A stretch of 64,000 bases of DNA. Source: a virus. Both the position numbers and the translations under genes were made by a program. Every line of letters starts with the position of its first letter. The first letter of the stretch is position 1. Below are positions 29,077-47,562 of the stretch, piece after piece. The notes beneath the pieces are model-generated. The model saw only the letters and a program-made list of their open reading frames with translations, had not been told where the DNA came from and searched no databases. The stretch is from the IMG/VR virus record IMGVR_UViG_3300044981_000350, positions 1 to 64,000 of that record. One strand, 5' to 3'.

Positions 29077-29691
29077 ATGCCGATCACGGACGTCAAAGAG
29101 TTCGGGCAGTACATCCAGGACAGCGCCGCATCCGACATCGATGAGCTGCCGAAGTGCGGCACCGTTGGATGGTTCGGGCCCAACCAAGGCTTCATGTACT
29201 TCGAGGTGTTCAAGCCGAACCCCCTCGACGTTTACTCGACCATCTTCGCGATCTTCCAAAGCGACGATACGATCCGCATCTATCAGCTTCCGGGCGCCAA
29301 ACCCCCCAACACGCCCGACGACAAGTGGCGCATCCGCCCCCCTTCGCGTTGGACCCTAACCCGGGTGGCGCCCACCTACGTCTCTGAGGCTTTCCCGAGC
29401 ATGGATGCCATCGCCGATGCTATCGTCGCGGAGTTCGACGAGCTTGGTGAAGCCTCCGCCAGCGCCGACGTGGAACTGACGCGGGTGATCGAGTTCCTCG
29501 AAGCCGCGAGCCCCCTCACACCCGTGCGTGAGCTCGTCGAGCAGTTGGGCGATCTTCAACACCGCGAGATCGATGACGACGATGACGAGGAGCCGGAAAC
29601 GGATCCCGCCGGTGCGGCCCCCACGGTTTCATCCCCACCAACCCCCGTGCCTCTTGCCCCCGTGCCCCCCTCCACAACGGAACCCCGATAA
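29077..29691 (+). CDS. Hypothetical protein opening the virion module
   Basis: The 204-residue product has a globular N-terminal half (MPITDVKEFGQYIQDSAASD ... CGTVGWFGPNQGFMYFEVFKP) and an acidic, then Pro-rich tail (DDDDDEEPETDP to PLAPVPPSTTEPR). Pro-rich ends are common in virion-assembly proteins. It directly abuts the next structural gene (TAAATG). No family is recognised. Confidence 0.5.
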   Translation: MPITDVKEFGQYIQDSAASDIDELPKCGTVGWFGPNQGFMYFEVFKPNPLDVYSTIFAIFQSDDTIRIYQLPGAKPPNTPDDKWRIRPPSRWTLTRVAPTYVSEAFPSMDAIADAIVAEFDELGEASASADVELTRVIEFLEAASPLTPVRELVEQLGDLQHREIDDDDDEEPETDPAGAAPTVSSPPTPVPLAPVPPSTTEPR

Positions 29692-30543
29692 ATGACGTCG
29701 ACGGCCACCCTTACGTACACCGCCTTCCTCGGTGGTGCGACGGACACCGAGCTCGCGGCCCTCATAAGCGCGGTGCCGGTGCCCCCTTCGGTGTTGAACG
29801 CGCTCGGCCTGCGGGTCATCTCCGACAACACGCCGGTGGCTAACCCGGTCGTCCGGACGATTGTGCTCGCATTGAATCCCGCTAGCACCGCGACGGCCAC
29901 CGCGGCCCTCGCGACCCAGAATTCCGGGAGCGCAGTTGGGGCCATCACGGTCACGAGCCCGGGTTCGGGGTATGTCCTGCCCCCCATCGTTTCCTTCACT
30001 GGAGGCCGCCCCGCCAACGTGGTGGTCGCAGGTTTCCCAACGCTTTCCACCGATGTCAATCAGCTGGCGGTGTCGGCTAATAGCCCCGCAGCCGCCCAGG
30101 CCTATTTGAAGGTGGTAAGCACCAACATCGCGGCGGGCGGCTCGGGCTATTCCGCCGGCACCACGTTGAGCGTCGTGGGTGCGCAAGAGCAAGGCGCAAC
30201 CCCAGCGGTACTCACCCCCACGATTGTGGGCGGCGTCATCACCGCCGTGGCTATCACGAACGCAGGCGATGGCTACACCGGGATCCCGCAGGTGTTCGCG
30301 GTCGATCCGATGGGGACCGGCTCGGGCGCGGTCATCACGGCCGGCATGGGCGTTGGGAACATCGCGCTCTATCGTGGCGGCACCGGATACATTTCGGCAC
30401 CGACGGTGGTGCTCACGCCGGCCTTTCAGGCCCTCTTCCCCCCCACGGGCGATCAGGCCTATCCCCTTCAGCAACTCATGACGTCGGCACTCGAGGTCGC
30501 GACCATGGGGCCGGTGTTTGCAAGCCCGGTGATGATCGCGTGA
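29692..30543 (+). CDS. Beta-repeat structural protein
   Basis: The 283-residue protein contains at least four copies of a 'GxGYxxxPxVxF' unit: SPGSGYVLPPIVSFTGG, AGGSGYSAGTTLSVVG, NAGDGYTGIPQVFAVD and RGGTGYISAPTVVLTP. This GSGYxxPPxV repeat forms beta-solenoid-like elements in many phage fibre, tail and baseplate proteins. No membrane segments or catalytic sites are seen. A virion surface protein is likely. Confidence 0.65.
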   Translation: MTSTATLTYTAFLGGATDTELAALISAVPVPPSVLNALGLRVISDNTPVANPVVRTIVLALNPASTATATAALATQNSGSAVGAITVTSPGSGYVLPPIVSFTGGRPANVVVAGFPTLSTDVNQLAVSANSPAAAQAYLKVVSTNIAAGGSGYSAGTTLSVVGAQEQGATPAVLTPTIVGGVITAVAITNAGDGYTGIPQVFAVDPMGTGSGAVITAGMGVGNIALYRGGTGYISAPTVVLTPAFQALFPPTGDQAYPLQQLMTSALEVATMGPVFASPVMIA

Positions 30544-30707
30544 AGCCGGCCGACAATCACCCGTTCAAAACCCGCCGCCGCGCCATCGCGGGCCCGAACG
30601 TCGACGACGCGCCCGCGAAACACCCACGCCCCGATTGGATGTCGAACAAGGATTTGCTCCCCAAGAAGCCGCCCGTGGGTCCGTCGACCCCGAAGGACTA
30701 CCGATGA
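30540..30707 (+). CDS. 55-residue basic Pro-rich peptide
   Basis: GTG 30540 overlaps the stop of the previous gene and the stop overlaps the next ATG (ATGA). The product begins MKPADNHPFKTRRRAIAGPN and continues with Lys/Pro-rich, probably disordered sequence. It may be a small virion or assembly factor. It is too short for family recognition. Confidence 0.5.
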   Translation: MKPADNHPFKTRRRAIAGPNVDDAPAKHPRPDWMSNKDLLPKKPPVGPSTPKDYR

Positions 30708-32212
30708 GTGACGATTTGGATCTCGAAGACACGTCGGAAGAGGAGCCCGAGGAGACCCCCAAGCCCGCACCGCGCAAGTCGATGCGGCCAAAACGCGGGG
30801 TTGGAAACGCAGGTGCATTACCGGCGGCCGTCGGCGTAGCCCCCGGGGCCCCCGCGCCATTCCGCCGCCAAGCTTCCGAGGCCGATGCGGTGTGGAATGA
30901 GCTCGTCGCGTGGCTTCCTTCTGCGGGATTGACCCCGCGTGACATCGCGATCCAAGTGCGTCGCGTCGCGCCCCCCGCGCCCTCCGGTGAACCCCTCCCG
31001 ATCGGTCGCGCGTTCGGCGGCGAGATGGTGAGCGGGAACAACACCGAGCCCCCCGGCTCTGCGCTTGTGCAGTTCGTCATGCGCTACATGCACATGCCCC
31101 TCACCCAGACACCGGCCAGCTACGATCTCATGTTCATGCGCAAGGCCACCGGCGCGCAACTCGCGACGGGCCGCTTGGCATTGCCTTCGGCTCAAGATTG
31201 CCAGGCGATGTTGCAGGCCGGCGAGCAAGCCGGTTTGGGGGCCCCGGGCGCACCGCCACAACAGATGTGGCAACCGCCGCCGATGTATCCGCAGGGCCCG
31301 GGGTTACCGCAGGGGTACCCTTGGCCTTCACAAGGGACCGGCTATCCCCAGACCTACCCCTCGGCGCAATTCGGGCCGCCCCCACAACCCACTGCGCCGC
31401 AAGGATTCGCGGCCCCCGGAATGGATCCCGGGGTGATGAGCGAACTCGCCTCACTCCGCGGTGCGCTCGGTGAAGCACTCGCAGCGGCGCGCGAAGGCCG
31501 TCAACCGAATATCCCCGGCATGACGCCCCCCGCAACCCCTACGGGCACCGGCGGCCTTACCGATCTCGATGTCGATCGCATTGCCGCACGCGTCGCGACG
31601 ATGATGGGCGCGGTTGCAAAAACAGTGGGGGCCCCGCCGGCACCTCCTCCGCCCGTCCCGACGGTTGCGGCGCCTCCCCCGGATTCGAGCCTCGAAGGGA
31701 TGATGCGCACCGCGGTCGCCGGCATGACCAAGCGCATCTTCGACACCGCCCTCGGGAGTGTCGAAAAGAGCGTGACGCGATCCATCGGCATCGGCGGTCT
31801 GCCGGGTGGTTCAGAAGACGATGGGGATGAAGAGCGGCCGGCGCCCGCGGAGATCATTCCGCCGGAGAAGCCCGAAGACATGGTGCCGTGGAAGGTCGGC
31901 GACGTCGGGGCCAACTGGAGTAACGGAAGCCCCGTCAAGATCGCGATGAACAAGGAGACGGGGAAATTGGATCCCATGGGCCTCGCCTTTGCGAACCCCG
32001 CGGTGGCCGAAAAGCTCATCGACGTCGCCAACGGTCTCGGGATGGCACTTCAGGATGCGATCAAAAACTTCGGGGCGAAACCCGGAGTCGGCGCACCGCC
32101 GCAGCCGAGCCCCCACGTGGTGCATTCGATCCCCGCCGGCGCCGTCGACGCTACGGTCGGGGCCTCAGATGATACGCCGCAAGCAATTCCCGACGGTTGG
32201 CAAGCGCCGTGA
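30704..32212 (+). CDS. Large Pro/Gln-rich structural or scaffold-like protein
   Basis: The 502-residue protein starts acidic (MSDDLDLEDTSEEEPEETPK), has a short globular block (VWNELVAWLPSAGLTPRDIAIQVRRV), a long Pro/Gln/Tyr-rich disordered region (PPQQMWQPPPMYPQGPGLPQ and onward), helices (ELASLRGALGEALAAAREGR), and a C-terminal block with EIIPPEKPEDMVPWKVGDVG. This disordered, multivalent build is typical of scaffolding or internal virion proteins. Confidence 0.55.
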   Translation: MSDDLDLEDTSEEEPEETPKPAPRKSMRPKRGVGNAGALPAAVGVAPGAPAPFRRQASEADAVWNELVAWLPSAGLTPRDIAIQVRRVAPPAPSGEPLPIGRAFGGEMVSGNNTEPPGSALVQFVMRYMHMPLTQTPASYDLMFMRKATGAQLATGRLALPSAQDCQAMLQAGEQAGLGAPGAPPQQMWQPPPMYPQGPGLPQGYPWPSQGTGYPQTYPSAQFGPPPQPTAPQGFAAPGMDPGVMSELASLRGALGEALAAAREGRQPNIPGMTPPATPTGTGGLTDLDVDRIAARVATMMGAVAKTVGAPPAPPPPVPTVAAPPPDSSLEGMMRTAVAGMTKRIFDTALGSVEKSVTRSIGIGGLPGGSEDDGDEERPAPAEIIPPEKPEDMVPWKVGDVGANWSNGSPVKIAMNKETGKLDPMGLAFANPAVAEKLIDVANGLGMALQDAIKNFGAKPGVGAPPQPSPHVVHSIPAGAVDATVGASDDTPQAIPDGWQAP

Positions 32213-32319: not shown

Positions 32320-32328
32320 TAGGCTTCG

Positions 32329-33639
32329 GTGGTGGTGACGCCCCATTGGCCGTCGTATCAAGGCACGGCCCGACGGGGCCTCGGGCTCGACGTGGGATCG
32401 CTCACGACGGTCGCCAGCAGCGCGGGCGCTGCGGCCAACGCCGGAGACGTCTTCAACCCGGATGATCCAACGCAGGATCTACCGGGGCAGGCTACGGCTC
32501 AGTTCAACTCGTTGGTGAATTCGGCCCAGCCCGCGGTAGCTCTACAGCAACAGCTTCAAAGCGCGATCGGCTCCGCCACCGGCCAAGCCCAAGCGGCTTT
32601 CCAAGGGTATGCGGGCGAGATCCAGGCCATCGAGAGCTACCCCGGGGCGGCGGAGGCGGCCGAAGGGATGATCACGGCCGCCGGTGGTGGTGTGCCGACG
32701 GACGCTCAGCTCCAAGGGGCCTTCACCGTCGCGGCAACCGCCGGTGCCGTGGCCCTCGGTGCGACCGCGACGGCCGCGGCGACTATCGTGGCGCCCCTCT
32801 GCGCGGTCGTATGGGGAGCCGGGTACGCGATTGGGGCCCTCGTCCAAAACATCCTCGGGATCACGAGCGGTAGCCCTGCACCATGCTCCGGCGGCGACAC
32901 CGCGGTGTACGGAACATCTCCCGGAGATCCGAACTGGCAAACGTACATGGGGTTATCGGGCCCAGAGCTCGGCGCACCGTGGGGCCCCTACGCACCCCAG
33001 CAAGCAGCGAACATCCAAACGTTGAAGAGCCTCGCCGGTAACCCGACGTACGGCGCCCCTGCGAACTGGCCCTATTGGACCCCGTACACGCGAGGGGCCT
33101 TCGAGAACTGGGCCGGCGGGATCATCATCCACGCCGAAGAGCTTTGGATGAATTGCAAGAAGGTGCCGCCGGACAACACGGCGACCACGCTCTTGAAGGG
33201 TCTCGTAGGGGCGTGGAACGCGCAGTACCCCAATGCGCCGAAGCGTCAGATCAACATCGCCGGCCTGGGGCCGACACCATTGGATGGCCAGATCAAGACG
33301 CTGAGCAACACGTCGTTTCCAACAAGTTTTCGGCCCCCGCTCTATTGGCAATGGATGGCATGGCAGGGCGATCCCATTCAGTACCTCTTGACCCAGGTCT
33401 CGAATGAGCAAGGGGGGAATATCGCGATCACCGTCGCCGACCCACCCCTGACGCCCCCCGCGGCCTCGGCCCCTACTACTTCCGCGGGTACCGCCGTCGC
33501 CAACGTCGCGGCCGGTACCGCCGTCGTCGGCGGGGCGGCACTCACCGGGACCGCAGTGTATGCTTTTGCCAAGGGTCAAGCCGTCAGCACCGTCCTCAAG
33601 TCGGGCTTGCTCGCGATCAAGGGATGGTTCATTCGATGA
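32329..33639 (+). CDS. Membrane-associated virion protein
   Basis: The 436-residue protein has an Ala/Gln-rich N-terminal region, a hydrophobic segment around residue 130-165 (AATAGAVALGATATAAATIV then APLCAVVWGAGYAIGALVQN), a Trp/Tyr/Pro-rich central globular domain (NWPYWTPYTRGAFENWAGG), and a C-terminal membrane-like stretch (VANVAAGTAVVGGAALTGTA). Three consecutive GTG codons start at 32329. It precedes and overlaps the first of the NP-tagged membrane proteins, suggesting a role in an internal membrane or its vertices. Confidence 0.55.
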   Translation: MVVTPHWPSYQGTARRGLGLDVGSLTTVASSAGAAANAGDVFNPDDPTQDLPGQATAQFNSLVNSAQPAVALQQQLQSAIGSATGQAQAAFQGYAGEIQAIESYPGAAEAAEGMITAAGGGVPTDAQLQGAFTVAATAGAVALGATATAAATIVAPLCAVVWGAGYAIGALVQNILGITSGSPAPCSGGDTAVYGTSPGDPNWQTYMGLSGPELGAPWGPYAPQQAANIQTLKSLAGNPTYGAPANWPYWTPYTRGAFENWAGGIIIHAEELWMNCKKVPPDNTATTLLKGLVGAWNAQYPNAPKRQINIAGLGPTPLDGQIKTLSNTSFPTSFRPPLYWQWMAWQGDPIQYLLTQVSNEQGGNIAITVADPPLTPPAASAPTTSAGTAVANVAAGTAVVGGAALTGTAVYAFAKGQAVSTVLKSGLLAIKGWFIR

Positions 33640-34079
33640 AACGCCGCCGCAGAGCTCGCGCGAACCCGACGGGGGCCCAATGGCTCCTCATCTCGGGTGC
33701 AATCGGCGCCGTCGGTGTGCTGGGCTACCTCGTCTACAAGGCGAACGCCCCCGCTGCATCGCTCCCCTCCGGTGCCGGCTCGACCTACAACGTTCAGCTC
33801 TCTTCGGGTTCTCTCCCGACCATCACGATGTCGCTCTCGAAGGGCGACCAGATGAGCCTCACGCCCCCCGCGGGCGGTACCCTCCCCACCGTGACCTTCA
33901 GCCCCACGAACATCGTCGGCCCCAACCCCAACGGGGCCTACCTTGCCTACTCACCGATCGCGGTCGGTAGTACGACGTGCACGGTCAACTACACCGACAC
34001 GACCGATACAACCAGCACGACGAGCACCGCCACCGGCAACACCGAAACCGCAACCTTCACCGTGAACGTGACAGCTTGA
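33636..34079 (+). CDS. NP-tagged single-span virion protein with beta ectodomain (copy 1)
   Basis: The N-terminus MKRRRRARANPTGAQWLLIS leads straight into one membrane span (ISGAIGAVGVLGYLVYK), followed by a Thr/Ser-rich Ig-like beta domain (YNVQLSSGSLPTITMSLSKG ... TATFTVNVTA). The basic stretch, Arg-Ala-Asn-Pro, then a span is shared by at least seven other small proteins of the module. Positive-inside topology puts the short basic tail on the DNA side of a membrane and the beta domain on the other side. Confidence 0.65.
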   Translation: MKRRRRARANPTGAQWLLISGAIGAVGVLGYLVYKANAPAASLPSGAGSTYNVQLSSGSLPTITMSLSKGDQMSLTPPAGGTLPTVTFSPTNIVGPNPNGAYLAYSPIAVGSTTCTVNYTDTTDTTSTTSTATGNTETATFTVNVTA

Positions 34080-34279
34080 TGGCTCGGCGTCGCGCGCGGG
34101 CGAACCCCGGAGTGGATGTGTGGCTCGCGCTTGGCGCAGGCGTCGCCTTGCTCGGTGCCGGCATCTACTTCTTCACCAGACCGGCAGCCACCACAAGCAC
34201 TACCGGCACCGGCGCACTTCCCCCAAGCACCCACCGCGCGGCCATCCCGATGGTCTACACCGCCCGCCTCACTTCCTGA
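34079..34279 (+). CDS. NP-tagged single-span protein (copy 2)
   Basis: ATG 34079 overlaps the previous stop. The 66-residue product begins MARRRARANPGVDVWLALGA, one span ending YFFTR, and a short Thr-rich tail without a folded ectodomain. It shares the tag of its neighbours and therefore belongs to the same family in a minimal form. Confidence 0.65.
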   Translation: MARRRARANPGVDVWLALGAGVALLGAGIYFFTRPAATTSTTGTGALPPSTHRAAIPMVYTARLTS

Positions 34280-34291
34280 TCGGAAACCCCC

Positions 34292-34738
34292 ATGGCCCGT
34301 CGACGCAAGCGCACCCGTAAGACTGAAGTTCGAGAGAACGGCCCCGAGCTCCTCTGGATTCTCGCTGGGTTGGGCGTTCTCGGCGCTGGCACCGTGGTCT
34401 ACCTCGCAACGCGGCCCCCGGCGACGACGACTCCCTCGTCGGCCGCGGTGCAGGCGGCGACGCAAGCGCGCCTCAACGCGATCGAGTCGAACATCGCTGA
34501 TCTGGCCAATGAAGGAATCCCGGCGCCGGTGAGTGATACGATCCCGAACAACGTCGCCACGGCTCTTTCGAACGGTGGCGGTAGTACGGGCCCCGTGAAC
34601 ACCGGGAACGCCGACGTCGACAACGCTGCGAACAGCGCGATCAATAACGCTACGGGCCAAGCTACCGACGCGGTGAATAACGCGACGAGCAGCGCCGGCA
34701 ACGCGGTGAACAGCGCGGCCTCTCAGCTCGGATTCTGA
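34292..34738 (+). CDS. NP-tagged single-span protein with Asn/Ala-rich helical ectodomain (copy 3)
   Basis: The N-terminus MARRRKRTRKTEVRENGPEL carries a variant of the tag (Glu-Asn-Gly-Pro) before the span LLWILAGLGVLGAGTVVYL. The ectodomain is helical and Asn/Ala-rich (NADVDNAANSAINNATGQAT), reminiscent of a trimeric coiled-coil or late-embryogenesis-like repeat, unlike the beta ectodomains of the other members. Confidence 0.6.
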   Translation: MARRRKRTRKTEVRENGPELLWILAGLGVLGAGTVVYLATRPPATTTPSSAAVQAATQARLNAIESNIADLANEGIPAPVSDTIPNNVATALSNGGGSTGPVNTGNADVDNAANSAINNATGQATDAVNNATSSAGNAVNSAASQLGF

Positions 34739-34747
34739 TCTTTTCCG

Positions 34748-35359
34748 ATGGCGCGCGCTCGTGAAAACCCCATTGAGCTGGCCGTGTGGCTCATCGCTGC
34801 CCTCGCGGCCGCAGCGACAGGTACGGTTGTCTACGTAGCTGCGAAGAAGAGCGCATCGAACGCCGCGGCCACTGCGGCGACAACGGCCGCGAACAATGCG
34901 GTGCTCATCGGCCCCGCCATCACGAACCCCGAGGCCGGCGGCGCGGGAAACTCTGTCGCCGAAGCGGCCAACGCCGCCTTTGTGGCCGATCAGCAAGCCG
35001 CCGCCGCGGCCGCCGCCGCCAACGCCGCCCACCTCGCGACGTTGACCGACACGACCTACCAGCTTTCATTGAGCGGGCAGGCCCCCTCAGCGACCGCCAG
35101 CTTTCTCCTCAAGGTCGGCGACACGATCCAGATCACGCCGAGTATGGCCGGGGACCCGCCCGTGGCTCGGGTGTGGACCTACAGCCCCGTGAGCTCTAGC
35201 AGCATCATCCAAGAGTTGGGCTCGGCCGATGGGGTGAGCGCCACCTTCAAAGCGACCGCCCCGGGCTCGGGGGTTCTCCTCGTGCAGAACGTCATGGCTG
35301 GCAACCAGAATGTCGTCTACATGACCTACACCGTCAACGTCGAGGTCATCGCAACGTAG
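34748..35359 (+). CDS. NP-tagged single-span virion protein with Ala-rich linker and beta domain (copy 4)
   Basis: The 203-residue product begins MARARENPIELAVWLIAALA with the tag and one span, then a long Ala-rich helix (KKSASNAAATAATTAANNAV and DQQAAAAAAAANAAHLATL), and a final Ig-like beta domain (TYQLSLSGQAPSATASFLLK ... MTYTVNVEVIAT). The layout suggests a stalk that holds a domain away from a membrane. Confidence 0.65.
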   Translation: MARARENPIELAVWLIAALAAAATGTVVYVAAKKSASNAAATAATTAANNAVLIGPAITNPEAGGAGNSVAEAANAAFVADQQAAAAAAAANAAHLATLTDTTYQLSLSGQAPSATASFLLKVGDTIQITPSMAGDPPVARVWTYSPVSSSSIIQELGSADGVSATFKATAPGSGVLLVQNVMAGNQNVVYMTYTVNVEVIAT

Positions 35360-35386
35360 GGGCGAACATAGGGTATTGGAGGCATG

Positions 35387-35419
35387 GGCGGGGGCAGCCT
35401 TAGCCAATTCTGCCCCGCC
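35387..35419. promoter_or_regulatory. Stable hairpin in the gap before 35.4-kb gene
   Basis: GGCGGGGGCAG (35387) pairs with CTGCCCCGCC (35410) leaving one bulged G, loop ccttagccaatt. There is no U-run behind it, so it is more likely an mRNA processing or translation element than a terminator. A promoter-like AGTAAACT follows at 35422. Confidence 0.45.
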
Positions 35420-35435
35420 GCAGTAAACTCCCTCT

Positions 35436-35705
35436 ATGGACGTCAAGTCGGGCGCTCTGGTCGGTTTCGTGACGGCCCTCGGGGGTGTCGCCGGCCTCGT
35501 GTTCGGATACACGGCTGCGTCGCTGGTCGACGCCAAGAAGCCCGGTGAGGTCGCGGTAGGGTTCGGGGTGATCGGCGGCCTGGTGGCCTCCTTCGCGGCC
35601 GGCACCATCATCGCACCGGACGCAACTACGACGACCAGCACGACCACAACGACCCCCACCCCGGCGGTGGGCTCTTCCGGGATTCCGGCGCAACTCAGCC
35701 GATAA
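35436..35705 (+). CDS. Two-span membrane protein with Thr-rich tail
   Basis: The 89-residue product has spans SGALVGFVTALGGVAGLVFG and VAVGFGVIGGLVASFAAGTI, a short loop with DAKKPGE, and a Thr-run tail (ATTTTSTTTTTPTPAV). It lacks the basic NP tag. It lies among virion membrane genes; holin-like size and topology make lysis another option. Confidence 0.55.
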   Translation: MDVKSGALVGFVTALGGVAGLVFGYTAASLVDAKKPGEVAVGFGVIGGLVASFAAGTIIAPDATTTTSTTTTTPTPAVGSSGIPAQLSR

Positions 35706-35716: not shown

Positions 35717-36931
35717 GTGGCCGACTTCAACCCCGCACTTCCCGCGACGGCGACCCGGCGGCCCTACCCCGATGGGGCCCCGGGCATTCGCATGTCCCTT
35801 GAGGCCATGGCGCAGAAGATGCGCGAGGGTCGGTTGGACCCCGGCGTGCGGGGATGGGCGATTCAGGCGTTGAAGGATGCGGGGATCGACGGGCGTGGAA
35901 ACACGACGGTGCGCGCGCAGGCTTCGGCGCTCTTGGATGCATTGCGGGCGGTCACGACATACGCACCAGATCCCTACGGGGCCGAGTATATCCCTAGCGC
36001 CGCCGCCACGTTGTGCCTCAAGCCAAACCTCTGCGTCAACGGCGAAGACTGCGACGGGTTGAGCGTTGCACTCGGAAGCCTGATGCTGTCGATTGGGATC
36101 CCGACCCAGATCGTCAAGCAGACCTTCGGGGGCGGCGCCCAAGAGCACGTCCTCATCGCGATCTACGACGGGACCGATTGGCTTTACGCTGATCCGTCGA
36201 CGCGGTTGCCGCTCGGGGGCGCCGTGAGTGCAGCGCGCGAAGATTGGATCGATCCGATGGGTGCGGTGGGCCCTCTGCCGGAGGCGCAACCCGAGATCAT
36301 CACCCTCGGAAAACCGCGCGGCCTCGGGAGCGTTCTCGGGTACCCGACGACTTCCGACGCGCACCAACTCCTCGACACGGCGATCTACAACGCCGGCCAG
36401 CTGAAGACCGCGTGGGATAACTGCAACAGCTGCACAGGCGCTTCGTCGACCACGTGCGGATGGCCTGACCCGGGTACGACTAACATTTCCGCAACCGGCC
36501 CCGGCGCCGATGCGTGGGCTGCGTGGCAAGCCGACTGCGGCAGTATGATCAACGACCTCAATACGCTCGTCGCGCAATGGAACGCGCAGAGCGCGACGGC
36601 TGCGCACTGGATGGATTCGTGGAGCTACGACCCGCTTTTTTGGGATCAGATCCGCGGTATCATCGAGCGTCAGATCGATCTCGATCAGCGCTTCCGAAAC
36701 AGCGGCACTAACTGCGCGCTCCCGACTTACCCGAATGAGCCGCAGCCGATCGCTACGAACGACCCCGACCAGTGGGTTTACCAGGATGCGAACAGCGCGA
36801 TCAAAGGGGTCGAGAGCGTTGCGGCCAATGCGGTGAAGCCGGTGTCGATCGCGATCGGCGGCATCGCAGTCGGCTTGATGCTCGCCGCCGGCGGTTACTT
36901 CCTTCTTGATCGACTCATCCCCCGGCGATGA
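35717..36931 (+). CDS. Transglutaminase-fold protein with C-terminal membrane anchor
   Basis: The 404-residue product contains a transglutaminase-like papain-fold core: Cys112 in NGEDCDGLS, His144 in QEHVLIAIYDG, and Asp159 in YADPS. A Trp/Asn-rich middle domain with a Cys cluster (NCNSCTGASSTTCGW) follows, and a C-terminal span (SIAIGGIAVGLMLAAGGYFL) ends the protein just before the basic tail. Transglutaminase-like phage proteins can act as proteases or amide-forming enzymes on protein or peptidoglycan. Anchored in a virion membrane it could be an entry enzyme. GTG 35717 is used. Confidence 0.7.
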   Translation: MADFNPALPATATRRPYPDGAPGIRMSLEAMAQKMREGRLDPGVRGWAIQALKDAGIDGRGNTTVRAQASALLDALRAVTTYAPDPYGAEYIPSAAATLCLKPNLCVNGEDCDGLSVALGSLMLSIGIPTQIVKQTFGGGAQEHVLIAIYDGTDWLYADPSTRLPLGGAVSAAREDWIDPMGAVGPLPEAQPEIITLGKPRGLGSVLGYPTTSDAHQLLDTAIYNAGQLKTAWDNCNSCTGASSTTCGWPDPGTTNISATGPGADAWAAWQADCGSMINDLNTLVAQWNAQSATAAHWMDSWSYDPLFWDQIRGIIERQIDLDQRFRNSGTNCALPTYPNEPQPIATNDPDQWVYQDANSAIKGVESVAANAVKPVSIAIGGIAVGLMLAAGGYFLLDRLIPRR

Positions 36932-39466: not shown

Positions 39467-40798
39467 ATGGCCTATCAATCGCGAATCGTGAATCAGCCGA
39501 AGAGCAAGACGCTCGTTCGGCCCCGTCCCGCAGACCGCTACGTCGTGGGCGCCTCCGGCGTTCCCAATGAGGCGAAGATCAAGGCAGGCCTCGGCTCGGC
39601 CGGTCTCGGCTCGATCCTCGACATCATGAAGGCGTCTAGCGAGACGCCGGTGTGGAGCATGGACGTCATCGAGCAGGTCCGCTGGACGATGACCGGCCCG
39701 CAGACCGACGCGTCGGTTCAAGCGAACTTCGGCGCGGAGATCGACCTCTTCGGCTCCGGCAAGTCGCCGCAAGGCATTGACTTCGTCGAGACGACGATGG
39801 CGCAGACGGGCCAGACGCAGACGCACTTCGTCGCCTGCTACATCGGCTTCCACATGGAGCCGGAACCCCTCTGCTTTACGGCGCGCGGCAACGCGTCGAC
39901 GCACCCCACGAGCGCGGTGGCTCAGCCCCCGTCCCCGGACGTCTTCACGCAGAACGACCGCGCCAACGGCGCCCTCGGCACGGCCGTCGCGGCCGGCACC
40001 CAGACGTTCCTCCCGGCGGTCTACCGCCACGGCTGGTGGGCGAACTACGTTTGCTGGCACATGGCCCGCGCGTACAACCTCCGGTGGAAAATCGGCCAGC
40101 ACGTCAACATCATGGACGAGCAGTTGCGCCACACGGCGTACATGCCGCCCAGCGCGCAAGAGGGCTCGGCCTCCAACTCGCAGGTCGATGTGACCACGTT
40201 CGTCGCGAACCTCAACCAGCGCTACGACTCGCTCGGGTCCGCGCTCGACTTCATCCCGTCGAACTTCATCCGCATCGGTAGCGACGCGGTCGGCGGCGTG
40301 AACGTCGGTTTCTTCATGCCCTCGCGTGACTTCGAGATCGTCGATGCCACCTACGGCGGCATGGACCTCCGGAGCATGCTCAAGGGCAACAGCGAGATGC
40401 GGAAGCTCTGCGTCCCGTACGTCATCGCCCCGGGCGTGCCCATCGGCCTCTTCCTCCAGGAGTGCGACACAGTTCAGGGCGACACGATGCGCCAGTTCCT
40501 CTCCATCACGCAAGGCCTCGGCGGCGCAATCCCGCCCTCTCTGACGCCGGACGAGAACTACATCGCGGAGCCGACCGCCACGGGCACCAACGTCATGTTG
40601 GAGCGCACGCTGAGCGGCACGAACGTCGCGCAGCAAGTCGACGCCGAGCGCGTCGTCTTCCAGGGCGGCGATCTGAAGCTCACGCTTCCGATCCGCGGCT
40701 TCGAAGTGAGCGCCGACTGGTACAACCAGCTCTCTTCGTCCGCCGACATCCGCGCCGCGGTCTTCGACTGCGTCGGGATGCGCTTCGCGGCTCAGTGA
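39467..40798 (+). CDS. Candidate major capsid protein
   Basis: The 443-residue soluble protein has no membrane segment or enzyme motif and is mixed beta-rich (QTQTHFVACYIGFHMEPEPL, VNVGFFMPSRDFEIVDATYGG, LKLTLPIRGFEVSADWY). It begins MAYQSRIVNQPKSKTLVRPR after a fair ribosome site. It has its own leader region and is followed by two further beta-rich genes. Size and context suit a major capsid protein, possibly of a jelly-roll type as in tailless phages. I recognise no HK97-like pattern. Fold assignment needs structure prediction. Confidence 0.5.
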   Translation: MAYQSRIVNQPKSKTLVRPRPADRYVVGASGVPNEAKIKAGLGSAGLGSILDIMKASSETPVWSMDVIEQVRWTMTGPQTDASVQANFGAEIDLFGSGKSPQGIDFVETTMAQTGQTQTHFVACYIGFHMEPEPLCFTARGNASTHPTSAVAQPPSPDVFTQNDRANGALGTAVAAGTQTFLPAVYRHGWWANYVCWHMARAYNLRWKIGQHVNIMDEQLRHTAYMPPSAQEGSASNSQVDVTTFVANLNQRYDSLGSALDFIPSNFIRIGSDAVGGVNVGFFMPSRDFEIVDATYGGMDLRSMLKGNSEMRKLCVPYVIAPGVPIGLFLQECDTVQGDTMRQFLSITQGLGGAIPPSLTPDENYIAEPTATGTNVMLERTLSGTNVAQQVDAERVVFQGGDLKLTLPIRGFEVSADWYNQLSSSADIRAAVFDCVGMRFAAQ

Positions 40799-40832: not shown

Positions 40833-41588
40833 ATGAGCAATATCGTCGCATTCAGCGAGGAGCAGTTCAAAGCGCTCATCGCTCAGATCCGAACCCCCCA
40901 TAGCAGCGGGTTGGGCGCGCCTCCGGGCAAGCCCTCTCGAGCCTTGGGGTTCGGATGCGGCGACAGCGACTTCGGCCCGCTCGCCACCGGCATCTACTCG
41001 ATGCTGGCGGCGGGCTCGCCGCGTCTCGCTCTCGCCAAGGCGCGCGGCGTTCCGCTCGCCCCCTACATCATCAACGTGCGGGCGATCTTCCCGGACACGT
41101 CCACCACGTTGGTCCCCGACGTCGGCAGCGACGTGAAAATTACGCAGGATACGCTCATCGACTCGCTCATCATCCGGATCCAAAACGAGTCGGACACGGC
41201 GAACCAGAACCAGTTTCAGTCGCTCTCTGACTTCTTCTACGGGTACCAGAGTGCGATCGAAGCGACCCTCGATGTGCAGGGCGCGCCTCGCTATACGGTC
41301 ACCGGCGATAAGTTCGTTCCCCTCAGCGTGCTGGGCGATCCGAACAACGGCGTCGGGCACTGGCCCGGCGGGTGGGTGCTCACGTATCAGCAACAGCTCT
41401 TCATGAGCTTCCAGGCGAAGGTGCTCCTTCCCTACGCGCCGATCGAAGTGATCTGCTCGTTCCGCGGTTGGGTGCCGGTCACCCAAGCTTTCGTCAGCAT
41501 GACGAACCGCGAGGCGATCACGCTCCTTCAATCGGAGTTCGGCATTCAACTGGACGATTCGTACATCAATCGAGTCGTTGCCCTCTGA
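40833..41588 (+). CDS. Candidate second capsid protein
   Basis: The 251-residue protein (MSNIVAFSEEQFKALIAQIR) has a short helical N-terminus and a beta-rich body (AIEATLDVQGAPRYTVTGDKF, WVLTYQQQLFMSFQAKVLLP, IEVICSFRGWVPVTQAFVSM). A strong ribosome site (aaggagacc) precedes it. The position between two other candidate shell proteins suggests a minor capsid, penton or second major subunit, as in phages with two capsid proteins. Confidence 0.45.
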   Translation: MSNIVAFSEEQFKALIAQIRTPHSSGLGAPPGKPSRALGFGCGDSDFGPLATGIYSMLAAGSPRLALAKARGVPLAPYIINVRAIFPDTSTTLVPDVGSDVKITQDTLIDSLIIRIQNESDTANQNQFQSLSDFFYGYQSAIEATLDVQGAPRYTVTGDKFVPLSVLGDPNNGVGHWPGGWVLTYQQQLFMSFQAKVLLPYAPIEVICSFRGWVPVTQAFVSMTNREAITLLQSEFGIQLDDSYINRVVAL

Positions 41589-41600: not shown

Positions 41601-42410
41601 ATGGGTCGCATCGTCGAAATTGCTTCGAGTGGGCTCGATGAATACCTCCAAGGCGTCGGCGGCGACCCTTGGGGGGGTTCATCTGCGCTCGGCTTGCGCG
41701 TTCCCTTTCTTGCGACGCCCGACAAGAACAACCGCTACCTCTTTCTCCTCGCGAGCTTCACGATCGGCGAGGGCGCGTCGGTAGTTATCAAGGGCTACCG
41801 ACAATACGCATCCCTCGGGATCGCGCTCAGCGCAACGCGGTTCATCGAGCAAGAAATCACGAGCCCTGCGTTTCGACTCCCCGACGGGAACATCAGCTGG
41901 GCGATCCGAGGGTTGGGCCCGCCGAACGCCGGCGGCTACCCAAAGCAGGGCCCTACCCCCGACGATCTGCGTTCGTTCAAGAAGAACTGGGCCGACGGCA
42001 GCTGCCTTCTCTATAACGACTACACGATCGCGGCGGGCAACCAGATTTACACGCAGCTCGAGTCCTACGTGGCGCCGAACCTCGGTCGACCGTGGGGCAC
42101 CGCGCTCCCCGCCGGGCAGCAAGGCAACTTCACCGACCTACGCACGCCGTGGAAATCGAGCCGCGCGTGGGCGAGCCTCGATGTTCACGTCGATGGACCC
42201 ACCACCATCGCGTTTTTCGCCAGCGTGCGGCAAAGCGCCGGCACCTACGCGGCGGCCGCCCCATCGGCGAGCTTCTCCGGGATGAACACCCCCGAGGAAG
42301 CTTTCATGGCGAACTTCACGACGGGCGGCGATGCGCCCACGAAGCCAATCTACTGGCGCGTCGGGGGAAGTCTCATCGTGGAAGTGCAGAAAGGATTCAC
42401 GGGTCCATGA
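41601..42410 (+). CDS. Candidate third capsid-associated protein
   Basis: The 269-residue protein (MGRIVEIASSGLDEYLQGVG) is beta-rich with blocks LGLRVPFLATPDKNNRYLFLL, ASFTIGEGASVVIKGYRQYA and LDVHVDGPTTIAFFASVRQS. It has no membrane segment. Its stop overlaps the next NP-tagged gene by 4 bases, linking shell and membrane genes in one transcript. Penton or spike-base roles are possible. Confidence 0.45.
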   Translation: MGRIVEIASSGLDEYLQGVGGDPWGGSSALGLRVPFLATPDKNNRYLFLLASFTIGEGASVVIKGYRQYASLGIALSATRFIEQEITSPAFRLPDGNISWAIRGLGPPNAGGYPKQGPTPDDLRSFKKNWADGSCLLYNDYTIAAGNQIYTQLESYVAPNLGRPWGTALPAGQQGNFTDLRTPWKSSRAWASLDVHVDGPTTIAFFASVRQSAGTYAAAAPSASFSGMNTPEEAFMANFTTGGDAPTKPIYWRVGGSLIVEVQKGFTGP

Positions 42411-42784
42411 AACGCCGCAAACGTCGTTCCTCAGAGACGATCGTCGTCTACCAGAAGAACCCGAAAATCTCCCCGTGGGTGTGGGTCCTCGGCGGGGCGG
42501 CTCTTCTCGGCGGCGGGTACCTCACCTACTGCTATTTCAAGACGCACTTCACGGTCGCGGCGAGCATGGCCTACGGGGTGCCGGCCGGCGCAGCGATTAC
42601 CCTCACTGCCCCCGCGGGCGCCACATGGACCGGGCTCACGGCCAGCGATGGGAGTCAAGTGCAAGTCGCGGTCGGGCAGACGACCCCCCTCACGTTTACC
42701 GCGAGCGCCACGACGGGCGTGACGTATACCGTCGCGTGGACCCTCAACAACGTGCCGGCGACGGCCACCATCACCACGCAGTAA
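42407..42784 (+). CDS. NP-tagged single-span protein with Ig-like domain (copy 5)
   Basis: The N-terminus MKRRKRRSSETIVVYQKNPK has the basic stretch and Lys-Asn-Pro, then a span (SPWVWVLGGAALLGGGYLTYC). The ectodomain is an approximately 75-residue beta sandwich with the phrase LTAPAGATWTGLT, closely mirrored in the next two genes. These three look like tandem duplicates. Confidence 0.65.
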   Translation: MKRRKRRSSETIVVYQKNPKISPWVWVLGGAALLGGGYLTYCYFKTHFTVAASMAYGVPAGAAITLTAPAGATWTGLTASDGSQVQVAVGQTTPLTFTASATTGVTYTVAWTLNNVPATATITTQ

Positions 42785-42788
42785 ACCC

Positions 42789-43190
42789 ATGGCTCGTCGA
42801 AACCCAGACCTGTCCACCCTCTGGTGGGCCCTCAGCGCCGCATCCCTCGCAGGCACCGTCGGCTACTACGTCGGCAAGGGCGTCAACCCGCTCAACCCGG
42901 CGTCGAACGTCACAACGAATATCGCCCTGACGAATGGCGGTTCCCTCACGGCGCCGGCCGGCGGTACCTGGATCCTGACCCTCCCGAGCGGCGCGACGTG
43001 GACGAACCTGACGGACACGAACAACGACATCACCTCGCCGCCCACGGGTACCGGCCCCGCTACGATTACCACCCCGGTTTCGGGTGTGACCTACACTGCA
43101 ACGTGGAGCACGACCCCCACGACAGTGACCACCGGTCGAAACAATCGAAACAACCAGAATACGCAGACCGCCACGATCACGGCGCAATAA
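42789..43190 (+). CDS. NP-tagged single-span protein with Ig-like domain (copy 6)
   Basis: MARRNPDLSTLWWALSAASL starts with the minimal tag Arg-Arg-Asn-Pro and one span ending GYYVGKG. The ectodomain (NGGSLTAPAGGTWILTLPSG ATWTNL) repeats the fold of the preceding protein, then an Asn/Thr tail (GRNNRNNQNTQTATITAQ). Confidence 0.65.
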   Translation: MARRNPDLSTLWWALSAASLAGTVGYYVGKGVNPLNPASNVTTNIALTNGGSLTAPAGGTWILTLPSGATWTNLTDTNNDITSPPTGTGPATITTPVSGVTYTATWSTTPTTVTTGRNNRNNQNTQTATITAQ

Positions 43191-43199
43191 GGGAATCCC

Positions 43200-43592
43200 A
43201 TGGCTCGACGAAAATCCCTTGCCCGCCGATCCCGATCGAGGGAAAACCCCGGCATCCCCCTCTGGATCTGGCTCGCCGGCGGGGCCCTCGCGGCGGGCGG
43301 CGTCGGCTACCTCATCTACACGAACACCGTGAACAGCCCGGCGCCGGCCCCGGGAGCTACGGCGGCCCCCGGGACGTCGAACATCACATTGGGTACGACC
43401 CCCGTCACCGTCCCCGGAGGCTTCGTTACCGTGAGTCTACCCGTCAACGCCACGTGGGTTTCCCTCACCGGCGGCGGGGCCACGGCGGGATCTTCTGACC
43501 AGGTGACTATCAACCTCCCCAGCGGAAGCACCGCGACGGCCGTTTGGAACAACGGAACGGCCCAACAGACCACCACCATTACCGCTTCGTAG
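43200..43592 (+). CDS. NP-tagged single-span protein with Ig-like domain (copy 7)
   Basis: MARRKSLARRSRSRENPGIP carries a longer basic leader before Glu-Asn-Pro and the span PLWIWLAGGALAAGGVGYLIY. The ectodomain (NITLGTTPVTVPGGFVTVSL ... TATAVWNNGTAQQTTTITAS) again ends in the TTTITA strand common to copies 5-7. Confidence 0.65.
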   Translation: MARRKSLARRSRSRENPGIPLWIWLAGGALAAGGVGYLIYTNTVNSPAPAPGATAAPGTSNITLGTTPVTVPGGFVTVSLPVNATWVSLTGGGATAGSSDQVTINLPSGSTATAVWNNGTAQQTTTITAS

Positions 43593-43608
43593 CCCCGCGT
43601 AGTATCAT
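43580..43608 (+). promoter_or_regulatory. Candidate promoter before the next membrane genes
   Basis: TTACCG (43580) and TATCAT (43603) are spaced 17-18 bases apart and followed by a good ribosome site (taggagat) before ATG 43630. The gap is only 37 bases, so part of the element lies in the previous gene's end. Confidence 0.3.
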
Positions 43609-43629
43609 AGTCCTAGGAGATCAACCCCC

Positions 43630-43842
43630 ATGCGCCGTCGTGCTCGTCGAAACCCCACCCTTCCCACCTGGGCCCTCGTCCTCGGGGGAGCCGCCGTCGT
43701 CGGCGCCGTGGGTTACGCCATCTACACCAAGCAGCAAGCCACGACGCAGATCGCTGGCGCTGCCAACGCACTCGCCCCCGCGTCCACCACGACCACGTCG
43801 TCTACGACCACGACGACGCCGGCCGCCACTTCGTCGTCGTAA
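43630..43842 (+). CDS. NP-tagged single-span protein, short form (copy 8)
   Basis: MRRRARRNPTLPTWALVLGG has the tag and a span ending YAIYTKQQ, then an Ala-rich part and a Thr/Ser run (PASTTTTSSTTTTTPAATSSS). No ectodomain is present, as in copy 2. The Thr/Ser-run tail is like that of the protein at 35436 and could be an O-glycosylation target. Confidence 0.65.
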   Translation: MRRRARRNPTLPTWALVLGGAAVVGAVGYAIYTKQQATTQIAGAANALAPASTTTTSSTTTTTPAATSSS

Positions 43843-43851
43843 ACCCCGCCG

Positions 43852-44394
43852 ATGGGAATGTGGGATCAGGCGAGCGATTGCGAGACCTGCGGCGGCGGCC
43901 TCCGCGCCTGGGGCCATCTCGCGCCGCCCAATCCTACTGTTTCCCTAGATGAGGTGAGTCCGATGGATGTTGGAAATCGATGGGGCATTTTGACGGGTGC
44001 CGGGGCCGCACCGGATCGGCTCCGGCGCGTGCCGCGGGTCTTCGCGGGGCTCGGTGACGACAGCTCCGACGATAACCCGCCCGTCGACACCGACACTACG
44101 AGCGGGAGCATCGACAGCAGCGACAACTCCGACGCTGCGGTCAACCCGACGATTTCACCGGTCACCGCCAACCCCGGCGAGACCATCTCCGCCAGCCCGA
44201 CGCCGACTGCGGTTTCAAACGCGAATGGCGGCGGCTCGACATCAAGCGGCGGTGGCGGTTCCCCGAGTGTCTCCTCAAGTACCCCCGCGAGCACGAACTA
44301 CACCCCGTGGATCATCGGGGGCGCGGTCGTCGGCGGGGCCGGCCTCCTCGGGTTCGCGCTCTGGCGGCGGCACCACAAGCTGCATCGGCGATGA
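43852..44394 (+). CDS. Virion protein with acidic ectodomain and C-terminal span
   Basis: The 180-residue product has a CETCGGG motif near the N-terminus, a long Ser/Asp/Thr-rich disordered region (DDSSDDNPPVDTDTTSGSID), a Gly/Ser stretch, and a C-terminal span with basic end (YTPWIIGGAVVGGAGLLGFA then [11 protein letters not shown]). Topology is the reverse of the NP-tagged proteins. The same 'PWIIG' span opens the C-terminus of the next protein, so they are related there. Confidence 0.55.
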   Translation: MGMWDQASDCETCGGGLRAWGHLAPPNPTVSLDEVSPMDVGNRWGILTGAGAAPDRLRRVPRVFAGLGDDSSDDNPPVDTDTTSGSIDSSDNSDAAVNPTISPVTANPGETISASPTPTAVSNANGGGSTSSGGGGSPSVSSSTPASTNYTPWIIGGAVVGGAGLLGFALWRRHHKLHRR

Positions 44395-44819
44395 AGCTCC
44401 TCGGCGCCGGTAATCGTGGCGCCGGGCTTGGGGATGCCTCGATCCTTCCGGCGGATCCACTCACCCAAGCGACTGCGGATCTTGTGGCGTGGCTCGTGGC
44501 GAGTCCGTGCACGCAAAACGCCGTCACGCAGGTAAGCGATTTCCAAACGGCGTGGAACACTTCGACGCTCGGCGGAACGCTCACCGTCGACGGTAAATAC
44601 GGGCCCCAAACACGCGGCGCGCTCCAAGCGGCGATGAACGCGGCGGGGACGGGGAGCGCCCCCGCAGATTGCTTCACGTCCGCGAGTGCGGTGTGCCCTC
44701 AGGCTGCGGCCGCTGCGTCATTCGCACCCTGGATCATCGGCACCGCCGTGGTCGCTGGCGCTGGTGTTATTGCGTACACTTATTGGCAGCTCCACCACGC
44801 TCGCGGCGGCCGCCGCTGA
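44391..44819 (+). CDS. Peptidoglycan-binding-like domain with C-terminal span
   Basis: The 142-residue product contains [35 protein letters not shown], which fits the PG_binding_1 motif (FQ..W...[13 protein letters not shown]). A C-terminal span ([20 protein letters not shown]) with a basic end follows. A virion-membrane protein that grips peptidoglycan would help cell-wall penetration. ATG 44391 overlaps the preceding gene. Confidence 0.65.
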
Positions 44820-44829
44820 GGATCCCCCG

Positions 44830-45507
44830 ATGCCCATTCCCTACACCCAACCGGGTTACTCGTACAGCCCCGTCGCAGCCGTTTCGCTCGGCCAAGTGGG
44901 GGCTACGGGATCGCACGGGGCGAGCGGGCCGACAGGCCCCGCGGGGGCCACTGGAGCCACCGGACCGACGGGCACTACCGGCGGAGCGGGAGCGACGGGA
45001 GCTACCGGGAGCGGAGCTACGGGAGCCACTGGAGCCGCCGGCGCGACAGGCCCCGGTGGTGGAGCCACGGGAGCTACCGGCGCAGGTGGTGCGGCCGGCG
45101 CTACGGGCGCCACCGGAGCGGCCAATACCGGCCATCATGCCTACAGCCAAAACGCGTCGGCGGTGAGTGCCTCTACGACGCCGACGTTCACGAGCGGGTC
45201 CTACACCTCGACTTCGGGGACGATCCTCATCATCGCTACCATGACGGCTACGGGGCTTGGCGCGACGTTGGCGGCAAACGACGCCGTTGTCTTCAACCTC
45301 CTCCAAGACGGATCGATCATCGGAACTTCCCCGAGCATGAGCGTTGGCGCTGCGGGCCCCGGCCCGGTCGACGCGTCGGGCGCCCTCTCGATGATCCTCG
45401 CCGCCTCCGGAGCCCACACCTACGCGATCCAAGCGACGGTTTTGACCGGGAGCCACACCGCCACCGTTCAAATCGGCCAGGCCGCCATTTCCATCACCGA
45501 CCTCTGA
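44830..45507 (+). CDS. Collagen-like spike protein (MPIPYTQPG type, first)
   Basis: ATG 44830 starts [20 protein letters not shown], then about 70 residues of Gly-Ala-Thr/Gly-Pro repeats, and a C-terminal beta domain of about 125 residues ([20 protein letters not shown]). The N-terminal tag recurs in the next gene. Such short collagen-like proteins with TNF-like or knob heads are trimeric spikes. Confidence 0.75.
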
Positions 45508-45531
45508 TTTTTTCCCTCCGAGAGAACCGCC

Positions 45532-46137
45532 ATGCCCATTCCCTACACTCAGCCCGGTATTGATTACAGCGTCGCCGCGGTGGTCGCCGTAGGCGGCGGT
45601 GGAATGACCCGCGGTGCCACGGGCGCCACGGGGCCTTCCGGCACCATCGGGGCCACGGGCGCCACCGGAGCCGGAATCATCGGTGCGACAGGCGCCACCG
45701 GACCTACCGGCGTCGGCGCTACCGGCGCTACGGGAGCCAACGGCTCCGGCATCGTTTCGACCACCACCACCGCTTCGGATGTCGTTCTAACGACGAGCCC
45801 CGCGGCTATCGTCACGAGCTCCGCGGTGTCGGTCACGAGCGGCCAAAAGGTGTTGGTCCTATTCTCGGCCAACGTCGCCAACACCGGCGAGGTGGTCACG
45901 AGCGGGGAAACACTCGTGAGTTTCGCGGCGCAGTTCGATACCACGACCGTTGACTCTTTCCAACAGTTGTTGGTGAACGCCACCGACAACGGAAATGCGA
46001 CCGTGAGCTGGTCCTACGAGGTCACGGGCCTTTCGACGGGAAGCCACACGTTCCGGGCGCTCGGGTCGGTCGACGCCACTACGTGCACGCCCGAGGTCAT
46101 CGCGGCTCGCATCACCACTGTTCTTCTTCCGGGCTAA
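45532..46137 (+). CDS. Collagen-like spike protein (MPIPYTQPG type, second)
   Basis: The N-terminus [20 protein letters not shown] matches the preceding spike; the collagen-like stalk is shorter and the head (about 125 residues: VVLTTSPAAIVTSSAVSVTS ... FQQLLVNATDNGNATVSWSY) is similar in length but diverged. A ribosome site (cgagaga) precedes the ATG. Confidence 0.75.
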   Translation: MPIPYTQPGIDYSVAAVVAVGGGGMTRGATGATGPSGTIGATGATGAGIIGATGATGPTGVGATGATGANGSGIVSTTTTASDVVLTTSPAAIVTSSAVSVTSGQKVLVLFSANVANTGEVVTSGETLVSFAAQFDTTTVDSFQQLLVNATDNGNATVSWSYEVTGLSTGSHTFRALGSVDATTCTPEVIAARITTVLLPG

Positions 46138-46140
46138 CCT

Positions 46141-46785
46141 ATGAGCGTCGGCCAGATCCTCAACCGCGGCTCACGGGTTGCCGTTCAACCGGGGATCCCC
46201 GCTGGCGCTACAGGCCCGAGCGGAGCCACGGGGCCGACCGGCGCCACGGGAAGCACGGGGCCCACTGGCTCCCCCGGAGCTACGGGTGCTACCGGGGCCA
46301 CGGGTGTCGGAGCCACGGGCGCTACGGGGCCGGGTGGCGCGGGCACCGCCGGGGCTACCGGGGCTACCGGGGCCACGGGAGCTACGGGAACGGGAACAGC
46401 CGGCGCGACTGGCGCCACCGGACCGACCAGCGCCGGGGGGCCGGCCGTAGTCACCGCCTCTACACCAGAGGACACCAACCCCCACACGTTGACGACGCGC
46501 GCCATCACCTCCAATACGGAGCTCGTGGTCGAGGTTGTTTTTCTCGCGCGTGACCCCACCGACGGCAATGACGAGGGCGGCCGTATCGCCGGTACCTTCA
46601 AGAATACGGCGGGGACCGCAGTGCAAGAGGGGACGACGACGAAGGTGTGGCAGCAGGCGAACGCCGGGGGCGTCGTTTGCACCTTCGGCGTGACCGGCGG
46701 GAGCTACGAGATCATCGGGACCGGCAACGGTGATGGCACCACCGACTGGACTCTCTACATCTACGAGTACCCAAGCGAACTCTAA
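46141..46785 (+). CDS. Collagen-like spike protein, third of the cluster
   Basis: The 214-residue product has a different N-terminus ([20 protein letters not shown]), a collagen-like stalk to about residue 100, and a beta-rich head with acidic turns ([20 protein letters not shown]). It ends convergently against the glycosyltransferase gene, with the two stop codons overlapping. Confidence 0.75.
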
Positions 46786-47560: not shown

Positions 47561-47562
47561 TG

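What the first reader, a model, noticed from the sequence alone, without database searches (positions are those of the whole stretch)
29077..46785. Virion module without recognisable tail or terminase genes: candidate large tailless, membrane-containing phage
In 64 kb I find capsid-like, membrane, spike and transglutaminase-fold genes but no terminase, portal, tape-measure, sheath, tube or baseplate gene. Known internal-membrane phages (PRD1, PM2, P23-77 types) have genomes of about 10-18 kb, so a relative of this size with a full replication set would be new. No packaging ATPase of the FtsK/A32 type is visible either, which is the weakest point.
Basis: inference. Interest (0 to 1): 0.85.

Follow-up and report, generated by a model that had tools for sequence, protein, structure and literature searches.

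The report
Large tailless membrane phage family
This stretch carries the particle-building genes of a phage (genome about 73 kb) that very probably has no tail and carries a lipid membrane; it belongs to an apparently undescribed family of such phages with genomes of 67-124 kb, the smallest of them larger than the largest tailless membrane phage I know of.

Summary
The window is 64 kb of a 73.4-kb virus record. I found about 33 related IMG/VR contigs, 12 of them complete circles of 66.9-124.5 kb. Every locus checked keeps the same block: transglutaminase-like membrane protein, histone-like basic protein, main capsid candidate, then two further putative capsid proteins. Terminase, portal and HK97-capsid profiles find nothing real in any record. 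A deep-alignment AlphaFold model of the capsid candidate (pLDDT 76) is beta-rich and matches no HK97 protein. Its best viral fold match is a 211-residue protein, probably capsid protein gp46 of the tailless membrane phage SSIP-1 (identity unverified). The transglutaminase-like protein is homologous to SSIP-1 virion protein gp34. Half of the virion-module genes encode membrane proteins, as in PM2 and P23-77 and unlike lambda or Mx8. One claim needs correcting: SSIP-1 (43.8 kb) and sphaerolipoviruses (30 kb) already exceed "10-18 kb". The weak point is unchanged: no packaging ATPase in the window's genome, although 8 of 29 relatives encode a HerA-like ATPase of unknown role. I propose that the universal basic protein condenses DNA in the particle (inferred).

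The parts
27519..28991 (+). Protein with C-terminal RadC-like JAB metalloprotease-type domain, 490 aa; stands at the head of the module; possible virion maturation protease (inferred)
   Evidence: Pfam RadC E 4e-23; cluster present in all 11 contigs
29077..29691 (+). Conserved module protein, 204 aa, function unknown
   Evidence: Homologues in 10 of 11 contigs and 21 of 30 loci
29692..30543 (+). GxGY-repeat structural protein, 283 aa, candidate vertex or fibre protein
   Evidence: Repeat-type PHROG matches, best E 6e-10; only in the window's subfamily, 5 of 11 contigs
30704..32212 (+). Proline-rich core protein, 502 aa, function unknown
   Evidence: In all 11 contigs and 27 of 30 loci; no family match
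32329..33639 (+). Candidate membrane-associated virion protein, 436 aa, with a hydrophobic segment
   Evidence: Conserved in the window's subfamily; sequence
33636..35705 (+). Run of five small, mostly single-span membrane proteins, candidate inner-membrane virion proteins
   Evidence: Sequence; membrane-gene enrichment in the module
35717..36931 (+). Transglutaminase-like protein with C-terminal membrane helix, 404 aa, homologue of SSIP-1 virion protein gp34
   Evidence: Family profile against SSIP-1 gp34 E 3.7e-15, hhalign 97%; same layout; in 30 of 30 loci
36928..37581 (+). Conserved protein of the window's subfamily, N-terminal membrane helix, 217 aa
   Evidence: 5 of 11 contigs; sequence
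37859..39361 (+). Histone- or protamine-like basic protein, 500 aa, with a hydrophobic stretch; proposed DNA-condensing core protein
   Evidence: +34 to +54 net charge per 100 aa in 30 of 30 loci, far above other proteins
39467..40798 (+). Main capsid protein candidate, 443 aa
   Evidence: In all 29 family records searched; beta-rich AlphaFold model, pLDDT 76; fold match I1ZBH9, probability 0.97
40833..41588 (+). Second putative capsid protein, 251 aa
   Evidence: Follows the main capsid gene in 30 of 30 loci; no fold predicted
41601..42410 (+). Third putative capsid protein, 269 aa
   Evidence: Third in order in 30 of 30 loci; no fold predicted
42407..43842 (+). Four small single-span membrane proteins with basic N-termini
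   Evidence: Sequence; enrichment
43963..44819 (+). Two related membrane-anchored proteins, the second with a weak peptidoglycan-binding match
   Evidence: Cluster in all 11 contigs and 30 of 30 loci; PG_binding_3 E 0.016
44830..46785 (+). Three collagen-like proteins, candidate spikes or fibres
   Evidence: Gly-X-Y repeats; Pfam Collagen

Best explanation
The region is the virion-morphogenesis module of a large tailless, membrane-containing dsDNA phage. [quoted passage not shown] Shown: a universal syntenic block, no detectable terminase, portal or HK97 capsid in twelve complete circular relatives, homology of the transglutaminase-like membrane protein to an SSIP-1 virion protein, and strong enrichment of membrane proteins. 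Inferred: 39467-40798 forms the shell with 40833-41588 and 41601-42410; the small membrane proteins sit in an inner membrane under the shell; collagen-like proteins form spikes; the transglutaminase-like and peptidoglycan-binding proteins help entry through the cell wall; and the very basic 37859-39361 protein condenses the circular genome inside the vesicle, so that assembly around condensed DNA, or a motor borrowed from the host, replaces a virus-coded FtsK/HerA packaging ATPase in this branch.
For: Family of about 33 further contigs; 12 closed circles of 66.9-124.5 kb; order 35717-37859-39467-40833-41601 kept in 30 of 30 loci; no terminase, portal or HK97 capsid; no P-loop in any universal gene; capsid model beta-rich, pLDDT 76, pTM 0.73, best viral fold match a 211-aa protein at probability 0.97, no HK97 match; SSIP-1 gp34 homology E 3.7e-15; membrane genes 81/154 in virion modules versus 168/1028 elsewhere, p 6e-21, with tailed-phage controls 1/20 and 1/14 and membrane-phage controls 5/12, 11/19, 7/25; universal basic protein.
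Against: No particle has been seen. No significant match of the capsid model to a solved structure, and the name of the best predicted match was not shown. No capsid sequence similarity to SSIP-1, PM2 or P23-77. Folds of the 40833 and 41601 products were not predicted. All other large dsDNA viruses known to me package with an ATPase, and none is found here. Membrane proteins were counted with a crude hydropathy rule.
Confidence: 0.75

Rival explanations
1. A very divergent tailed phage (Caudoviricetes) whose terminase, portal and tail proteins are beyond profile detection.
For: Profile searches can be weak: the real terminase of Mx8 scored only E 0.014 with PF03237. Some fibre-like genes match PHROGs labelled tail or baseplate. 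The genome size and replication genes are typical of tailed phages.
Against: No P-loop protein among the universal genes, while every tailed phage needs a large terminase ATPase. No packaging, portal or tail family in the Pfam list of complete G010. Capsid model has no long helix and no HK97 match. The module is membrane-protein rich, unlike lambda and Mx8. A virion protein is shared with tailless SSIP-1.
Confidence: 0.12
2. A tailless membrane phage as in the best explanation, but with an ordinary packaging motor that was missed: a HerA-like ATPase in some branches and an unrecognised or host-borrowed ATPase in the window's branch.
For: HerA-like DUF87 ATPase in 8 of 29 relatives, four of them complete circles. 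SSIP-1 has a RecA-type ATPase annotated as a structural protein; the window encodes a distantly similar AAA_24 ATPase at 15020-15829 (hhalign 62%).
Against: Eight complete circles give no HerA match. The AAA_24 gene lies in the replication region, matches Sak4-like annealing proteins and is in only 5 of the 11 contigs clustered.
Confidence: 0.5
3. A plasmid-like or satellite element that does not make its own particles, or is packaged by a helper phage.
For: Integrase and circular genome; no packaging gene of its own.
Against: Full replication set and GH25 endolysin; a strongly conserved capsid gene and the whole morphogenesis block are kept across 67-124-kb genomes; the size argues against a satellite.
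Confidence: 0.06

Closest known systems
[quoted passage not shown]
   Same: Circular dsDNA genome; homologous transglutaminase-like virion membrane protein gp34; probable fold match of the main capsid protein (identity unverified); tailless with internal membrane (PMC6356626).
   Different: The family here is 67-124 kb; no detectable sequence similarity in capsid genes; no basic core protein found in SSIP-1 by profile; no counterpart of the structural RecA-type ATPase gp40 in the virion module.
P23-77 and sphaerolipoviruses (two vertical single-jelly-roll capsid proteins, FtsK/HerA-like ATPase)
   Same: Several capsid genes in a row next to membrane-protein genes; membrane-gene-rich module.
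   Different: 17-30 kb genomes; they carry a packaging ATPase, weakly detected here as a control in P23-77 and absent in the window's genome; no sequence similarity of capsid proteins.
PM2, PRD1 and other double-jelly-roll tailless phages (Bamfordvirae)
   Same: Tailless plan, inner membrane, spikes (by inference here).
   Different: 7-18 kb in the survey PMC5894146; FtsK/HerA-type ATPase usual; whether the capsid protein here is a double jelly roll is undecided.
Odin and FLiP groups of jelly-roll viruses
   Same: No packaging ATPase, so capsid assembly around the genome was proposed (PMC5894146).
   Different: Small genomes (up to 17-18 kb; the FLiP group is ssDNA); here 67-124 kb with a dsDNA replication set.

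Membership tests
Caudoviricetes (tailed phages) | Large terminase subunit (ATPase-nuclease) | tested here: not met
   PF03237 and phrog_2 negative in the window's record and relatives, 12 complete circles included; the single weak match is a helicase
Caudoviricetes (tailed phages) | Portal protein | tested here: not met
   PF04860 negative in 29 family records; no portal in the complete Pfam list of G010
Caudoviricetes (tailed phages) | HK97-fold major capsid protein | tested here: not met
   PF05065 negative in 29 records; the model of the capsid candidate matches no HK97 protein
[quoted passage not shown]
   Beta-rich model with about 20 strands, no significant PDB match
Bamfordvirae (double-jelly-roll viruses) | FtsK/HerA/A32 packaging ATPase | tested here: not met
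   PF01580 and PF01935 negative in the window's record; controls PM2 and P23-77 ring with PF01580; 8 of 29 relatives have a HerA-like protein of unknown role
Helvetiavirae / Singelaviria (two single-jelly-roll capsid proteins) | Two adjacent vertical single-jelly-roll capsid proteins | tested here: inconclusive
   Three adjacent conserved genes; best fold match of the first is a 211-aa viral protein; the other two were not folded; no sequence similarity to P23-77 VP16/VP17
SSIP-1-like viruses | Transglutaminase-like virion protein with C-terminal membrane helix (gp34) | tested here: met
   E 3.7e-15, hhalign 97%, same layout
SSIP-1-like viruses | Capsid proteins homologous to gp45/gp46 | tested here: inconclusive
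   Fold match probability 0.97 to a protein that is probably gp46, name not shown; no sequence-profile signal
Internal-membrane phages in general | Lipid membrane inside the capsid | not testable with these tools
   Only indirect: membrane-gene enrichment 81/154 versus 168/1028, with phage controls

The most novel reading that the evidence does not exclude
A new order- or class-level lineage of tailless membrane phages with 67-124-kb circular dsDNA genomes, in which most members carry no packaging motor and load the genome by condensing it with a histone-like core protein while the capsid assembles around it.
Probability: 0.3. Interest if true: 0.92.

Novelty: new variant of a known kind. Interest (0 to 1): 0.8.

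Why it matters
Tailless prokaryotic dsDNA viruses with jelly-roll capsids are regarded as small: 7-18 kb in the metagenomic survey PMC5894146, about 30 kb for sphaerolipoviruses, 43.8 kb for SSIP-1. A family of 67-124 kb would show that this virion plan scales to tailed-phage genome sizes in bacteria, would give the orphan SSIP-1 a wide set of distant relatives, and would pose a direct test of how a genome of that size is packaged without a terminase or FtsK-type motor. It also matters for annotation: such genomes lack the hallmark genes used to recognise phages, and several of their fibre genes would be mislabelled as tail fibres.

Tried and rejected
AlphaFold with three sequences failed (pLDDT 28); the 33-sequence alignment worked. 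PDB sequence-profile searches with the three capsid families gave nothing. tblastn against 50,697 phage records gave nothing relevant for the three capsid candidates and the transglutaminase-like protein. Two genome-contig scans found no prophage, so the host is unknown. An IMG/VR scan with SSIP-1 gp46 returned only SSIP-1 itself. Profile comparison of the capsid families with SSIP-1, PM2, P23-77, lambda and Mx8 capsid proteins gave no signal. The phrog_2 match in G021 was rejected as a ResIII-type helicase. A basic-NP-transmembrane signature was tested as a family trait and holds only in the window's subfamily. The AAA_24 (Sak4-like) protein as packaging ATPase was considered and judged unlikely: it sits in the replication region and is not universal.

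Full report
What was checked. The window is bases 1-64000 of a 73,439-bp virus record. I read the missing 9.4 kb, called genes over the whole record and read the virion module. The record breaks inside collagen-like genes at both ends, and in the complete relative G002 the collagen-like genes matching them lie mostly in one block, so the record is nearly a full circle.

Relatives. The 39467 product has no match in 50,697 phage records but is 74-75% identical to products of two IMG/VR contigs. One of these, G002, is a closed circle of 75,921 bp: its ends overlap by 110 bp and an intact gene reads through the join. Scans with profiles of the neighbouring genes widened the family to about 33 contigs besides the window's own record; the capsid profile rings with E below 1e-158 in all 29 virus records searched (most of these rows are in the profile). 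Twelve records have direct end overlaps of 50-127 bp, with unit lengths from 66.9 to 124.5 kb. Overlaps of that size fit assembly of circular or permuted molecules.

Core block. Clustering of 11 contigs found eight gene families in all of them (27519 RadC/JAB; 30704; 35717 transglutaminase-like; 37859 basic; 39467, 40833 and 41601; the 43963/44391 family) and a ninth, 29077, in ten. In 30 loci examined by profile, the 35717-37859-39467-40833-41601 order is kept 30 times on one strand. The 39467 gene has the highest identity to the near relative G002 (75%, against roughly 30-65% for the others), as expected of a major capsid protein.

No tail machinery. Terminase, portal and HK97 capsid profiles give no real hit in any family record; the only weak one is a helicase. 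The Pfam list for the complete genome G010 shows no packaging, portal or tail family. The lists for complete G003, cut at 25 families, likewise show none apart from collagen and tail-fibre-type repeats. No universal gene has a P-loop. A caution: the real terminase of Mx8 scored only E 0.014 with PF03237, so a single negative means little; the argument rests on many complete genomes together with the P-loop census.

Capsid fold. With 33 aligned sequences AlphaFold gave pLDDT 76.2 and pTM 0.73. The model has about 20 strands and no helix longer than 13 residues, unlike HK97 with its long spine helix (own knowledge). Foldseek against PDB gives no significant match; the insignificant top of the list is made of jelly-roll capsid proteins such as papillomavirus L1, with TM-scores near 0.1. 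Against predicted viral proteins the top hit is I1ZBH9, 211 aa, probability 0.97, TM-score 0.46 on the target, E 2.9e-3. No name was shown. SSIP-1 gp46 is 211 aa and I believe the accession belongs to SSIP-1, but this is unverified inference. A jelly roll is therefore likely, HK97 unlikely, and double versus single jelly roll undecided.

Link to SSIP-1. The 35717 family matches SSIP-1 gp34 at E 3.7e-15, hhalign probability 97%, with the same layout of transglutaminase-like core and C-terminal membrane helix. gp34 is annotated as a structural protein. Transglutaminase-like domains are widespread, so one shared protein is a link, not proof of common descent of the virions. SSIP-1 is a tailless internal-membrane phage placed among viruses with two vertical single-barrel capsid proteins (PMC4958249, PMC6356626, PMC5332951). 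No capsid sequence similarity is detectable.

Membrane. Predicted membrane proteins make up 81 of 154 genes of the virion modules and 168 of 1028 elsewhere in nine genomes (p 6e-21; the genomes are related, so the p-value is optimistic). By the same crude hydropathy test the morphogenesis genes of tailed phages lambda and Mx8 give 1/20 and 1/14, and those of membrane phages PM2, P23-77 and SSIP-1 give 5/12, 11/19 and 7/25. This supports a virion membrane but does not prove it.

Packaging. FtsK and HerA/DUF87 profiles are negative in the window's genome and its near relatives. Eight of 29 relatives, four of them complete circles, encode a HerA-like protein, about 600 aa where complete, with C-terminal repeats that look like winged helices; whether it packages DNA is unknown. 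The 37859 protein is exceptionally basic in all 30 loci: +34 to +54 net charge per 100 aa, against at most +27 for any other protein of 200 aa or more in the 11 clustered contigs; about half of the family also shows a hydrophobic segment. I propose that it condenses DNA in the particle. Assembly around the genome was suggested for the ATPase-less Odin and FLiP groups (PMC5894146), whose genomes are small. A borrowed or unrecognised motor is at least as likely.

Verdict. The family is a new variant of the tailless membrane-phage kind. None of my searches of the open-access library turned up a description of it, which does not exclude a description elsewhere.

Noticed in passing
33636-34079, 43200-43842; L001 (70273-70719 of the record): Small membrane proteins share an N-terminal Arg/Lys-rich stretch ending in NP just before the membrane helix; about 4 observed against 0.05 in shuffles in this genome, and only in the window's subfamily. 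Could be a targeting or cleavage signal.
   Followed up: partly
50480-50782: GroES-like co-chaperonin (Pfam Cpn10 E 1e-14), conserved in five of 11 contigs; could serve folding of the capsid protein.
   Followed up: no
2219-5609; L001 (71411-73439 of the record): Several long collagen-like genes share the N-terminal sequence [12 protein letters not shown] or a variant of it, and two of those in the virion module share MPIPYTQPG; probably a common anchor for exchangeable fibres.
   Followed up: no
46782-49573: Three genes on the opposite strand just after the virion module, including a glycosyltransferase (47787-48974) and a methyltransferase-like gene, possibly for glycosylation of fibres or host envelope.
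   Followed up: no
G006:12021-12143: A second, partial copy of the main capsid protein (positions 286-326 of the profile, E 1e-14) in a 158-aa frame downstream of the full gene.
   Followed up: no
18392-20902: Fusion of a uracil-DNA glycosylase domain with a family A DNA polymerase in one 836-aa protein, conserved in the near relatives.
   Followed up: no
14226-14720 and 51683-52609: A lipoprotein-like matrixin metalloprotease and a possible papain-like cysteine peptidase; the second is conserved in near relatives.
   Followed up: no
G010 (L048-L051): The complete relative G010 encodes a rhomboid intramembrane protease, which could process virion membrane proteins.
   Followed up: no
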